Notes under the pieces: generated by a model
Told to the model about the DNA's origin: nothing
Database searches by the model: none
The model's input: only the letters and a program-made list of their open reading frames with translations
DNA from: an uncultured Pelagibacteraceae bacterium
Lineage (GTDB): Bacteria; Pseudomonadota; Alphaproteobacteria; Pelagibacterales; Pelagibacteraceae
Assembly (NCBI GenBank): GCA_902594335.1
Contig: CACJLY010000007.1
Location: 1 to 64,000, forward strand
Direction: 5' to 3'
Length of the DNA: 64,000 nt
Shown here: positions 16,603 through 24,969 of the stretch, piece after piece
How positions within the stretch are numbered: position 1 is the first letter of the stretch
Layout: every line of letters starts with the position of its first letter
Program-made: the position numbers and the translations under genes

Positions 16603-16688
16603 TGGTGCCCTCGGCCAGACTCGAACTGGCACTCCATAAATGGCAAGGATTTTAAGTCCTTTGTGTCTACCAATTTCACCACGAGGGC
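16603..16688 (-). tRNA. tRNA-Leu(TAA), CCA encoded, intact
   Basis: GCCCTCGTGGTGAAATTGGTAGACACAAAGGACTTAAAATCCTTGCCATTTATGGAGTGCCAGTTCGAGTCTGGCCGAGGGCACCA. Confidence 0.95.
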
Positions 16689-16759
16689 ATTAATGAATTT
16701 CATGAGTATTTATGCCAATATTTATAATTGAACAAGATTAATAAGTAAAATTTTTTTAT
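16650..16759 (-). repeat. 110-bp repeat copy 1: 5' half of tRNA-Leu plus promoter
   Basis: About 95% identical, ungapped, to 22323-22432; first 41 bp identical also to 24929-24969. Confidence 0.95.
16707..16735 (-). promoter_or_regulatory. Predicted promoter of intact tRNA-Leu (TTGTTC-N17-TAAATA)
   Basis: Minus-strand -35 TTGTTC at 16730-16735, -10 TAAATA at 16707-16712, 18 nt upstream of tRNA 5' end; same promoter preserved in copy 2. Confidence 0.6.
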
Positions 16760-16791
16760 TTTATCTGTCTATGTACAAGTCTTGTACAAGT
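16757..16791. repeat. 35-bp direct repeat DR-L with two 11-bp-phased ACAAGT motifs
   Basis: TATTTTATCTGTCTATGTACAAGTCTTGTACAAGT; matches 22161-22195 with few mismatches. Confidence 0.85.
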
Positions 16792-16817
16792 TCTCCTGTA
16801 TAATCCTATAAAATATA

Positions 16818-19800
16818 TCAATAACCTTCTGGATTTACTGTAACTGTTAAACCACTAGCTGCCTCTGCTTCAGCAACAGCTTTTTTATGATCTGCACAAC
16901 CAGCTGCGTTTCCCGAACTACAAGCACTTCCTTGATTTGCTGCTGCATCGGTTAGACCTGAATAAACAACAGTTTGTCCTGGTCCGACGTTAACCCCAGT
17001 ACGACCGACTATAACAGCTATTGAGCCATCAGAATTTTGAACAAGTTGTACAACATTTTTTTCTGCTCTTACTCCCTCAATTACCTCATGTGCTGCTGCC
17101 TGAACAACTTGAGTAACTTCTTGAGCTACTTCTTGGGCAGCTTCTTGGGCAGCGCTTGCAGCTTCTGTTGCTGCCTCTGATGCAGCTGAAGCAACTTCTG
17201 TTGTTGAAGATGCGGCTGCCTTAGCCGCATTAACTGCATCAACAACACTCTGCTCTGCTGTAACTTGATTTTTTGCAGCTGCAAGAACATTTTCATCTAT
17301 TTGTTGACCTGAAGCTTTTGCAGTTTCTAATCTTGAAACTGCATCTTTTGCTTTTTGCAGTAACGCCTCTGCACCACCTTCTTCCATGATACTAAATTTT
17401 CCACTAAAAAATTCTTTTGTAACCTCACCTGCTGCCTCACCTATTGCACTGTCTAAGACTAATCCTTTAGTATTTACTGTGGCTGCAGCTAACGCATCAT
17501 CAAAACCAAATGGAGATTCAACTCCATCAGCAATTTGTTGATTAAAAGTCTCTAATTCTGATTTAGAAATATTAAATGCACAATCTCCTCCTGAGCACAT
17601 TCCACCTTGATTAATATCTCCAGTTCTAACAAAAACATATCCAGAGGCTGCAACCTTTTTACCTAAATCTCCACTAGGTCCACATTGATCACCACTACAA
17701 ATAATTCCTCCATACAAAGCATTTCCTGTATGACTATCTAATACTTGTCTTCCAGTTTTTGGATCAATGAGTGAATAAGTTCCTTCAGCCATATCATTTG
17801 TAGCAACAAGACCTTTTGCTGTTTCAAGACCAAACATACCTGAATTAATTTTTTCAGCAGCTATTTCGGATAACTGTATGTTTAAATCTCCTGTAGCATC
17901 AATTTTACCAACGCTTAAAATTTGTTCTCTTGTCACTGCTCCAGCTAGATAAACTTGGTTACCTCTTGTAAATGTACCTACAGGAGCTTCAAAATCACCA
18001 ACATCATCAGTTAAAGTGTTAGTATCAACTATTCTCATTAACTCAGTTCCTTCAATTTGAACGATTGATTTATTTTCTAATTTGGCAACAGCTTCAACAA
18101 TTTTTTCATTTACATTAATTCCTGATTTAATTGCTTGTGTCATTGCAAGATCAGCTTTGATTTCAATGACATTGGTTAACTCTTGATTAAGTTTAGATAT
18201 TTGATTTGAAATGTCTGGTGTTTCAGTTTCAAGAGTAGTTAATTCAGTTGTAAGAGATGCTAATTGACTATTAATTTCTGTTGATTGTTTTTCATAATCT
18301 TTCAATTGACTATCTAATTGAGCTATTTGACTTTCAAATTGAGCTTTTAATGTATTAGCTTCATCAGTTGCTTTACCCTGACTTTCAATTTGATTTGCAA
18401 TAGTAGTTAATTGAGTATTAAGTTTAGTATCCAGGTCTGCTCTTTGACCTTCTAGCTCACTCATTTTATCACTTAAAGGATTTAATTGTTCTTGAAGTGA
18501 AGCTAAGTTTTCAGTTTTTTCAGCTATCAAACTTTCTTTAGAACTAAATTGGTTTGATAAATCACTGATTTGATTTTGAATTTCACTTTCTGATGATTTT
18601 AATGAAGCAAGTTCACTCTCTAAATTATTTATATCATCATTAATAGTTAATGATTGAGACTTTGTTTGTTCAAGATCTTCAGATAATTTTGCTATTTTTT
18701 CATTTAAAGCATCTAATTTTGGATTAGTTGTTTTAAGCACAATGGATAATTGATTTTCAGCTAACTCTAAATCACTTTGACTTAGGTTTAATGGATCATA
18801 GTGATTATAAATTGCATAATCATCTATCCAACTATATTTTTTTGATTTTAATATTGCTGCAGCTTTTACATTTGACATTTCCCAATATGGACCGGTCATA
18901 AACTCAGAAACAGGTTTGTCTCCTATGTCAGCCATTGCAGTTCTTAATGCCTCTAAAGCTTGTACTTCAGTTGTACCATCAACAATGTCATATAATTTAG
19001 CTCTCATCATTGCAGGATCTAAATCTGCAACTAATTCTGCATTACCCTCAAAAGTAGGAACCTTATTTAAAACATCTGCAACTTTTTGGCTTATTTCCCT
19101 TAAAGGCTTTGTCTCTTCTGAAACTATAGCGTCATACTTAACACGTGCTTCCTCTACAGATTTAACCAAATTTTCTCTCGCTTGATCTGATACGCTATTT
19201 TTTATAGAAGAAATTTCATACTCTGTATTTCTTATCTCTTTTTCTATATCACTTTTTTCTAAATTAATTACTTGATCCTTGTTAAGACTTTGCGGAATTC
19301 GAGTATTCCAAATTTGCATGTTAATACTTAAACGTCTATCCCAGTTTTCTCTTTTGTACGCTTGGTTAGATGGTAAATTTCTTAATCTATTGTATTCTTT
19401 TTTTAAATTTTCTAGATTTTGTACAACGTTATTTCTATTATCGTTGTATTGATTAAACAATTGATCTGCGTTAACGTCAACTTGCTCAAGTGAGGATGTT
19501 AACTGATTAATTTTTTCTTGTTGTAATTTCAAATCTTGATTTCCCTCCAAAATTTTATCTATTTCCTTTACAACTAAATCTGTTTCAGCCACATTTGATT
19601 GTAGGCTAGAATATTGTATCCAAGTTGTATTTAGCCCTCTTAATTGCTCTATATCTTTGGTTTTTTCACTGATAGATTTTTGAACTTGATCTTTAGCGTT
19701 TTGTAACTCTAGTGATATTAAAGACGCTTCTTGAATAGCTTTTTCTTCAGCAATAATTACATTAATTTCTGCATTACTTGGAACACTGACATTCCATTCG

Positions 19801-23581: not shown

Positions 23582-24808
23582 TTAACTATAAATTTTATAA
23601 GGAATTGGTTTAGACACTTGTTCGCCACCTTCTATCATTCCCCGGCCATCATAACCAACCTTACTAGACGGATCATATGGGCGGCCATCGCAAAAATCAC
23701 ACCCAGGAAAAAACTGTCTTCCTTTAATGAAATTTTTTAATTTGGTTCTTAAATTTTCTGTTTCATTTAATAATTCTATATAGTCAGCTTTATTATTTGG
23801 AACTGCTTTTAAAGTATATGCATTTGCTATAAAAGGACATGTATAAAGTCTGCCATTCAAAAGTGTGTAGAGTTGTGTACTACAACATTCTTTAAAAACC
23901 TCTTTCAACTTTGAAGCTGATCTATTGTGTTGATGAATTCTACTACAATCAACCCAATTTTCTGGAGGAGATCTATTGTAAGTAATTTTGTAATGATCTA
24001 GTTTTTCTATCATTTTTTCAATACTTCTTGATAATTTTCCATAATCTGTAATTGTGAAAATCACATTATTTTTGTCGAAAGATTCTAGTTGTTCGTCTCT
24101 CGGTGCTATTGTGCCATTTGTATAAATAAATATTTTAGCTTCGGGATTGTTTTTAGAAATACCATTTACAACATCAGCCCAACCTTTATTCATAAGTGGT
24201 TCGCCACCTATTACTCTAAATTCAGAAATATAATCAATATTTTGATACAATGTATCTAAAGCTTTAAGTATATCTTCATGATCAGTATTTTTAGCGTCTG
24301 TATAATACTGCATAAGATTTGAACAATTTCTGCATTTCAATGAACATTTAGTAGTAACCATGACATCTAAACTTCGCATATAAGTTTTATCTTCATCAAA
24401 ATAAAATTGATGACTTTTTTTGTTTACCTCAATTTTTTCATTCATGAATGATTGTGAAATTTGATATGTATATTTTGAAATTTCAAAATTTTTTAATATT
24501 TCTAAAGGTGAGTAAAAATCTCGATAACCCAACTCGAATAATGGATCCAAACATTTTTGAATGTCATGATATGCAATAATAATGCGAGCCTCAGGAAATT
24601 TCTTATGAAGTACTGGAGTATGAATTATTTCTAATCCACAAATCTTTTTTCCAGATTTTCTTTTTTCACTATCACATAATGCTGAAATTACTATTCCTGC
24701 ATCATTGCAAGCTTTTATAATTGCCTCAACCTCTCTTACAGCAGCAGCAATTATGACTGGAGGTCCAGATTGTTTTAAAGTCTCAATACAGTTATATTTT
24801 GCTTTCAT
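23582..24808 (-). CDS. Radical SAM protein with N-terminal Rossmann-like domain (cargo 2)
   Basis: 408 aa; CSLKCRNC (CxxxCxxC), RVIGGEPLMNKGW, C-terminal Cys cluster (CPF, CDFCDG). Confidence 0.88.
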   Translation of the reverse strand: MKAKYNCIETLKQSGPPVIIAAAVREVEAIIKACNDAGIVISALCDSEKRKSGKKICGLEIIHTPVLHKKFPEARIIIAYHDIQKCLDPLFELGYRDFYSPLEILKNFEISKYTYQISQSFMNEKIEVNKKSHQFYFDEDKTYMRSLDVMVTTKCSLKCRNCSNLMQYYTDAKNTDHEDILKALDTLYQNIDYISEFRVIGGEPLMNKGWADVVNGISKNNPEAKIFIYTNGTIAPRDEQLESFDKNNVIFTITDYGKLSRSIEKMIEKLDHYKITYNRSPPENWVDCSRIHQHNRSASKLKEVFKECCSTQLYTLLNGRLYTCPFIANAYTLKAVPNNKADYIELLNETENLRTKLKNFIKGRQFFPGCDFCDGRPYDPSSKVGYDGRGMIEGGEQVSKPIPYKIYS

Positions 24809-24837
24809 AACTCTAATTATAACCTATTTCTAATCAT

Positions 24838-24909
24838 AATTGAAAGCTAAATTAAAGTTATGAGATTTTATAGGATGTTTACACTGCCTTGGACAATTAT
24901 GGACTGACT
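24838..24909. repeat. Conserved element outer end (copy B) with 10-bp tandem motif
   Basis: AATTGAAAGC..ATTTTATAGGATG then GTTTACACTG/CCTTGGACAA/TTATGGACTG; homologous to 22231-22302. Confidence 0.85.
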
Positions 24910-24928
24910 TTTACTTCTATCCCTCGTC

Positions 24929-24969
24929 TTTTAAGTCCTTTGTGTCTACCAATTTCACCACGAGGGCAT
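24929..24969 (-). repeat. Truncated tRNA-Leu 5' half, copy 3 (presumed ancestral 5' end)
   Basis: TTTTAAGTCCTTTGTGTCTACCAATTTCACCACGAGGGCAT, identical 41 bp; flanked upstream by a different plausible promoter (TTGTGT-N16-TATACA, 24983-25010). Confidence 0.95.

What the first reader, a model, noticed from the sequence alone, without database searches (positions are those of the whole stretch)
16603..24969. Two stacked cargo cassettes bounded by tRNA-Leu 5'-half copies
The 41-bp sequence TTTTAAGTCCTTTGTGTCTACCAATTTCACCACGAGGGCAT occurs three times: inside the intact tRNA-Leu(TAA) (16650-16690) and as truncated copies at 22323-22363 and 24929-24969. Each interval carries one two-gene cassette, all on the minus strand. 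Simplest model: an element inserted at the anticodon-loop region of tRNA-Leu, regenerated the tRNA and displaced the old 5' half, and this happened twice. It is analogous in logic to tRNA-targeted integrative elements and Prochlorococcus tycheposons, but is cargo-only.
Basis: partly seen in the sequence, partly recalled or inferred. Interest (0 to 1): 0.88.

Follow-up and report, generated by a model that had tools for sequence, protein, structure and literature searches.

The report
Integrase-less gene cassettes at SAR11 tRNA-Leu
In the ocean bacterium SAR11, small one-to-few-gene DNA cassettes insert one after another into a single tRNA gene; they carry no recombinase but have the same end sequences as rare virus-like satellite elements that do, so they probably borrow that enzyme, which would be a new route by which these streamlined cells exchange genes.

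Summary
The three 41-bp copies are exact (0 expected), and beyond the core the two intervals share both termini (left 62 bp at ~95%, right ~90 bp at ~75%) while their genes are unrelated. At this very locus four alleles exist in relatives: empty (G214), one other cassette (G269), an 8.8-kb integrase-bearing satellite (G120), and two cassettes (window). Successive tRNA-targeted insertion is therefore well supported. The 24929 copy borders an older third element, not untouched chromosome.

The case is not isolated. I delimited 99 elements at tRNA-Leu(UAA) of Pelagibacter. Two are satellites with a 545/551-aa tyrosine integrase; 97 are cassettes (267-5,700 bp) with no detectable integrase. Ends: tRNA promoter; two 9-11-bp direct repeats whose sequence differs between elements but is matched within each; a cassette-specific inverted motif TCCTATAAAATCC; three GACT repeats; core. 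One cassette is 97% identical end to end between hosts whose flanks are 75% identical. 194 of 206 genes point toward the tRNA.

Most likely they are non-autonomous elements moved in trans by satellite integrases whose arm repeats they share. Mobilisation itself is inferred, not shown. Closest: additive tRNA islands, CIMEs, phage satellites, tycheposons (recombinase criterion not met). New variant of a known kind.

The parts
16603..16688 (-). intact tRNA-Leu(UAA), integration target; the insert supplies its 5' half and its promoter
   Evidence: ARAGORN; only match in the 84%-complete own genome apart from the two truncated copies
16650..16690 (+). att core copy 1 (inside intact tRNA)
   Evidence: exact 41 bp
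16691..22363 (.). cassette 1 (class A, 5,673 bp), left end next to tRNA
   Evidence: delimited by core copies
16691..16770 (-). left end, promoter-like block upstream of tRNA (conserved among elements)
   Evidence: 62 bp shared with 22371-22432 at ~95%; conserved across elements and at most occupied and outermost sites
16772..16791 (+). left-end arm iterons: TGTACAAGT ct TGTACAAGT
   Evidence: perfect 9-bp pair with 11-bp period; such pairs in 35 of 53 cassettes vs 0.19 in shuffles
16794..16810 (+). cassette-specific motif TCCTATAAAATCCTATA (2 mismatches), left copy
16818..21275 (-). cargo: 1485-aa protein with signal peptide-like N-terminus and long coiled coils
   Evidence: ORF; only sub-cutoff coiled-coil Pfam matches
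21272..22147 (-). cargo: 291-aa protein, no Pfam match; relatives in 24 other genomes searched
22152..22195 (+). second copy of the cassette-1 left-end iteron block, upstream of the 291-aa gene (84% to 16748-16791)
   Evidence: repeat D7
22249..22322 (+). right end of cassette 1: inverted motif (22252-22268) then three GACT repeats
   Evidence: right-end profile 55.7 bits, built with this sequence among 26; motif; 48/52 identical to right end of the G120 satellite
22323..22363 (+). att core copy 2 (displaced tRNA 5' half)
   Evidence: exact 41 bp
22364..24969 (.). cassette 2 (class A, 2,606 bp); left-end iterons and left motif lost, so probably no longer mobile
22429..23514 (-). cargo: family 2 glycosyltransferase, 361 aa
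   Evidence: PF00535, E 2.7e-32
23582..24808 (-). cargo: radical SAM protein, 408 aa
   Evidence: PF04055, E 8.9e-11
24857..24928 (+). right end of cassette 2: inverted motif (24859-24875) then GACT repeats
   Evidence: 52.9 bits; motif
24929..24969 (+). att core copy 3 (displaced tRNA 5' half, at the border of the older element)
   Evidence: exact 41 bp
24970..30015 (.). older third element: other left-end type with degenerate 11-bp repeats (25037-25057), ComA-family gene, TctA-like, TctC-like and isomerase-like genes (last three named from sequence, not scanned); distal core lost in window, retained in G214
   Evidence: G214 alignment and second core copy; ORFs; ComA PF02679

Best explanation
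The window holds two members of a family of non-autonomous integrative cassettes of Pelagibacter (SAR11). Each cassette is core / tRNA promoter / paired left arm repeats / inverted motif / one to a few genes pointing toward the tRNA / inverted motif / three right arm repeats / core. A tyrosine integrase supplied in trans binds the arms, exchanges strands in the anticodon-loop part of tRNA-Leu(UAA), and inserts the cassette on the 5' side of the tRNA, giving the gene a new 5' half and promoter and pushing the previous occupant outward. The likely source of the integrase is the rare 8-10-kb satellite elements (545-aa integrase plus DUF5906-type primase) that use the same site, carry the same type of arms, and are found both in genomes and in viral contigs. 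SHOWN: sequential insertion, empty and alternative alleles, transfer of a cassette as a precise unit, absence of a detectable integrase in the cassettes, shared ends with satellites. INFERRED: that satellite integrase moves the cassettes, and how DNA gets from cell to cell.
For: Four alleles at the window's own site. 65 of 300 Pelagibacter genomes have two or more exact cores (counted). 99 elements delimited; none but two satellites has an integrase by blastp or profile search. Left iterons: perfect in 35/53 cassettes vs 0.19 in shuffles; 98.5% identical within, 56% between elements, 20 distinct units; left units and right ends co-vary (Mantel r 0.40, p 2e-4). Inverted motif at fixed positions in 65/97 left and 69/97 right ends, background 0.35%. 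L061_e1 vs L077_e2: 97.1% over all 2,852 bp, host flanks 75.5%. Window cassette-1 right end 48/52 identical to the G120 satellite; L108_e1 (ABC transporter cargo) 51/52 to the L083 satellite. Right-end profile hits satellites L004/L013/L016/L018 but no pelagiphage attP. Integrase N-terminal domain classes follow iteron classes: L016/L083 72% there but 50% in the core-binding domain; L016/L018 47% vs 85%; the AF2 N-terminus aligns to arm-binding domains of P4-like integrases 3jtz (TM 0.79) and 3ju0, though with weak E-values. Array G202: satellite plus three cassettes. Core variants in G202 place the exchange in the first 13 bp, TTTTAAGTCCTTT.
Against: No excised circle or cassette-bearing virion was found: 0 of 2.9 million IMG/VR contigs have the class-A right end plus core. 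The inverted TCCTATAAAATCC motif is absent from every satellite end examined, so another protein or a different helper may be needed. Satellite integrase was found in only 7 of 300 genomes and not in the window's own genome, which is 84% complete. The integrase/iteron link rests on six satellites. Identity between the 41-bp cores also allows homologous recombination.
Confidence: 0.72

Rival explanations
1. CIME-like cis-mobilisation: cassettes are decayed satellites that kept attL and attR; they move only when a satellite integrates beside them and the composite excises together.
For: CIME accretion is an established process (PMC5704250). G202 has a satellite in tandem with three cassettes. 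L108_e1 has cargo but satellite-type ends (51/52 identity, no inner motif), as expected of a decayed satellite.
Against: Most cassettes share an inner inverted motif that no satellite end has, so they are not simple deletion derivatives. Cassettes greatly outnumber satellites (97 to 2 delimited, plus the G202 one), cargo is highly diverse (111 singletons of 141 clusters), and a cassette moved alone between hosts without satellite sequence.
Confidence: 0.15
2. Homologous recombination: cassettes are fossils of old integrations and are now shuffled through the shared core plus promoter block (about 110 bp) after natural uptake of DNA.
For: The core and promoter block are conserved at most sites; SAR11 competence genes are noted in PMC7542561; some cassettes are chimeric (L073_e2/L081_e1, 94% over one half only).
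Against: It does not explain why arm repeats inside the ends stay identical within each element while differing between elements, nor the co-variation of left and right ends, nor the fixed spacing of repeats and motifs.
Confidence: 0.09
3. The ordinary pelagiphage integrases that use the same tRNA-Leu core move the cassettes.
For: Eight viral contigs carry the exact core and an ordinary PF00589 integrase; a pelagiphage-like genome with a tRNA-Leu fragment was reported (PMC3861242).
Against: Their attP arms lack the iterons, the right-end profile and the motif.
Confidence: 0.03
4. Plain segmental duplication of the tRNA region.
For: Repeated tRNA halves.
Against: No cargo or nadK-side sequence is duplicated; empty and alternative alleles exist at the same place.
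Confidence: 0.01

Closest known systems
Additive flexible genomic islands with recurring tRNA-end repeats (Actinomarinales PMC7771536; Methylophilaceae tRNA-Lys PMC10872708)
   Same: Small cassettes added at a tRNA, leaving truncated tRNA copies; variable size and mostly unknown genes
   Different: The passages read do not describe shared cassette ends, arm repeats, gene-orientation bias or an integrase source; here these were found, and in SAR11
CIMEs (cis-mobilisable elements, review PMC5704250)
   Same: Flanked by att sites, no integrase, tandem accretion with an intact element
   Different: Described as decayed ICEs/IMEs; here a coherent family with its own subterminal motif and within-element matched arm repeats
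Marine phage satellites (PICMI PMC10803314; VEIMEs, named in PMC11389934)
   Same: The associated 7.7-10-kb elements have integrase plus DUF5906-type primase, no capsid genes recognised, and occur in viral contigs
   Different: The cassettes have neither integrase nor primase; satellites here use tRNA-Leu, not fis
Tycheposons (as summarised in PMC10872708)
   Same: tRNA-targeted, cargo-carrying, marine
   Different: Tycheposons are described with a tyrosine recombinase and 4-200 kb; window cassettes have none and are 2.6 and 5.7 kb
Integron gene cassettes (general knowledge)
   Same: Arrays of one-to-few-gene units added at a fixed entry point in fixed orientation by a recombinase acting in trans
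   Different: Target is a tRNA gene, lambda-type arms instead of attC, genes point toward the entry point

Membership tests
tRNA-targeted integrative element | regenerated tRNA at one end, displaced fragment at the other | tested here: met
tRNA-targeted integrative element | empty attB allele in relatives | tested here: met
   G214; other matched sets
tRNA-targeted integrative element | encodes its own integrase | tested here: not met
   0 of 97 cassettes
Tycheposon | tyrosine recombinase in the element | tested here: not met
   definition from PMC10872708
Tycheposon | tRNA at border, cargo genes | tested here: met
Phage satellite (PICMI-like), for the cassettes | integrase and primase genes | tested here: not met
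Phage satellite, for L004/L016/L018/L083/L118 | integrase plus primase, no capsid genes recognised, related elements in viral contigs | tested here: met
   Pfam and PHROGs for L016/L018; gene order and homologues; viral contigs
Phage satellite, for L004/L016/L018/L083/L118 | packaging by a helper phage | not testable with these tools
   needs virion DNA and a host-phage pair
CIME | attL and attR kept, integrase lost, derived from an autonomous element | tested here: inconclusive
   att sites and lack of integrase met; derivation supported only for L108_e1, contradicted for most by the cassette-only motif
Additive flexible genomic island | repeated insertion at one site extending the island | tested here: met
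   arrays of up to four core copies

The most novel reading that the evidence does not exclude
A large, trans-mobilised, MITE-like cassette family is a main route of accessory-gene exchange in SAR11: integrase-less cassettes with element-specific arm 'addresses' are moved by whichever satellite integrase has the matching arm domain, using a further cassette-only end motif recognised by an unidentified protein.
Probability: 0.5. Interest if true: 0.88.

Novelty: new variant of a known kind. Interest (0 to 1): 0.8.

Why it matters
[quoted passage not shown] The cassettes give a concrete, testable mechanism: about a quarter of the genomes scanned (55 of 201) carry a recognisable cassette right end, in all 30 checked cases at this one tRNA, with restriction, protease, surface and metabolic cargo. 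The matched arm repeats offer a natural code that may link integrase arm domains to DNA addresses, and the satellite link ties cassette movement to virus-like elements.

Tried and rejected
Phage integrases as helper: attP arms do not match. Resident helper in the window genome: no homologue of the satellite integrase. A larger autonomous version with the inner motif: the 15.5-kb element in G193 and other large ones have no integrase. Cassettes elsewhere in the genome: the 30 right-end loci checked all lie next to the tRNA-Leu core. Cassettes in viral contigs: 0 for class A right end plus core. Isolate phages: no tblastn match to the satellite integrase. Full texts of the tycheposon and VEIME papers are not held, so a mention of such SAR11 cassettes there cannot be excluded. 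Papers searched for SAR11 tRNA cassettes gave none describing this system. Single-copy loci were first read as empty; several still carry left-end repeats and are half-decayed elements, so only loci with a shared chromosomal neighbour, or G214 for the window, are used as empty sites.
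Full report
Observation. The three 41-bp copies are exact and absent from shuffles. The first lies in the intact tRNA-Leu(UAA) at 16603-16688, the other two are the 5' half alone. So the two intervals have the same left and right ends around unrelated genes.

The window's own locus in relatives. The sequence from copy 3 outward (24929 on) is 92-95% identical in G120, G214 and G269, with the nadK side 84-87% identical. Between these flanks: G214 has nothing (intact tRNA joined to the copy-3 flank), G269 has one 3.2-kb cassette with another end class, G120 has one 8.8-kb element with a 551-aa integrase, and the window has two cassettes. 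G214 also has a further core copy beyond the isomerase-like gene, so window 24970-30015 is an older third element whose outer core has been lost in the window.

A family. 200 of 300 Pelagibacter genomes have the exact core and 65 have two or three copies (counted from its table). Named GTDB records with the class-A right end plus core give 108 stretches; every listed title is Pelagibacter or Pelagibacterales, many of them single-cell genomes, which argues against assembly artefact. I delimited 55 elements in loci fetched from genomes and 44 more from the named contigs (these loci were selected by right-end sequence). Median size is about 2 kb. One, L135_e1, is 267 bp with both ends and no gene. 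ORFs of 100 aa or more point toward the tRNA in 194 of 206 cases (129 of 135 and 65 of 71; binomial p 2e-43). Cargo is diverse: type I and other restriction-modification genes, Mrr-type and type IV nucleases, caspase-like and trypsin-like proteins, methyltransferases, aldolase/dehydrogenase, ABC transporter, ATP-grasp, MORN-repeat and pilin-like proteins; 111 of 141 protein clusters are singletons. Several cargo families occur with more than one end class.

End anatomy. Left end: a promoter-like block of about 75 bp (it lies directly upstream of the tRNA, also at most outermost and single sites, so it may be the native promoter captured by the elements or the reverse), then two 9-bp repeats 11 bp apart, beginning 80-82 bp from the core. 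The repeat sequence differs between elements (20 distinct units among 38) yet the two copies match (98.5% within, 56% between). Then TCCTATAAAATCCTA, at position 103 in 65 of 97 cassettes. The right end has the same motif inverted, at a fixed distance (69 of 97), then the GACT repeats, then about 25 bp and the core. In the 64-kb window this motif occurs three times, all at cassette ends. Left repeat and right end co-vary (Mantel r 0.40, permutation p 2e-4, not corrected for phylogeny). Cassette 2 of the window has lost its left repeats and motif; in arrays the proximal cassette had good left iterons in 11 of 11 cases, the distal one in 4 of 11 by the script's strict criterion (a few distal ones fail it because a different repeat scored best, so this is a trend), which fits new insertions arriving at the tRNA.

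Mobility as a unit. L061_e1 and L077_e2 are 97.1% identical over the whole 2,852 bp, in hosts whose nadK-side flanks are 75.5% identical, and at different array positions.

The integrase-bearing relatives. The exact core occurs in 16 IMG/VR contigs. Eight have ordinary PF00589 integrases beside attP; their arms do not resemble the cassettes. Four (L004, L013, L016, L018) have cassette-like arms and encode a 545-549-aa integrase (PF00589 weak, PHROG 1); a DUF5906-type primase and a RusA-like protein were identified in the ones annotated; no capsid gene was recognised. L004 is 7.8 kb with repeated ends, consistent with a 7.7-kb circle. Homologous elements sit in tRNA-Leu of G168 (7.8 kb, L083) and G120 (8.8 kb, L118); a more distant one of about 10.2 kb (31-34% integrase identity, different iterons) sits in G202, there next to three cassettes. 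The integrase family is rare in genomes (7 of 300). Window cassette 1 has a right end 48/52 identical to the G120 satellite, and L108_e1 one 51/52 identical to the G168 satellite.

Why in trans. No integrase was found in any of 97 cassettes. Among the satellite integrases closest to each other the N-terminal domain is the most divergent part, and its classes track the left-end repeats: L018/L004/L013 (CCTAG type), L016/L083 (CTAGTTT type, 72% identical there although only 50% in the core-binding domain), L118 (CTGGT type). The AF2 model (pLDDT 82) places a sheet-plus-helix domain there, and Foldseek aligns the model to arm-binding domains of P4-like integrases (3jtz TM 0.79, E-value weak at 0.2) and to lambda and Tn1549 integrases. 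Cassettes with each of these repeat types exist. This supports arm recognition by satellite integrase; it is not a demonstration.

Crossover. In G202 the satellite brought a tRNA 5' half with substitutions from base 14 of the core on, while the displaced copy has the standard sequence, so exchange lies in TTTTAAGTCCTTT, the anticodon-loop region.

Limits. Genomes are mostly incomplete SAGs or MAGs; elements were found through near-exact cores, so decayed ones are undercounted; the window genome is 84% complete; no circle was seen; cell-to-cell transfer is unknown. Prior work on tRNA-bounded additive islands exists in other streamlined marine and freshwater bacteria (PMC7771536, PMC10872708), and integrase-less tandem elements are known as CIMEs (PMC5704250). 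What appears new here is the end code, the cassette-only motif, the orientation rule and the satellite link in SAR11.

Noticed in passing
L009 (IMG/VR 3300025897_000973) 4930-5129: A contig with T4-like phage genes (PhoH and others) ends in a cassette left end with iterons, inner motif and tRNA-Leu core; no right end was found. Either a phage carrying a cassette or a chimeric contig.
   Followed up: partly
L163 (G202) tRNA-Leu at 11392-11477: The satellite replaced the 5' half of the host tRNA-Leu gene with a version differing at four positions of the 41-bp core.
   Followed up: partly
L072, L080 left and right ends: A different small element class (about 1.07 kb) at the same site with ACTACACTAG repeats at both ends.
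   Followed up: no
L164 (G158:C37): A distant relative of the satellite integrase lies next to tRNA-Ser(GCT), so the enzyme family may use other tRNAs.
   Followed up: no
L330 (G193:C7) 3598-19092: A 15.5-kb element with cassette ends and about 20 ORFs but no integrase detected.
   Followed up: partly
window 22152-22195: A second copy of the cassette-1 left iteron block upstream of the 291-aa gene; cassette 1 may be a fusion of two cassettes.
   Followed up: no
G054:C1 230336-234075: Relatives of the window 291-aa protein lie on both sides of tRNA-Leu in another genome.
   Followed up: no
L135 element 1 (2430-2696 of the oriented locus): A 267-bp element consisting only of both ends: a minimal or empty cassette.
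   Followed up: partly
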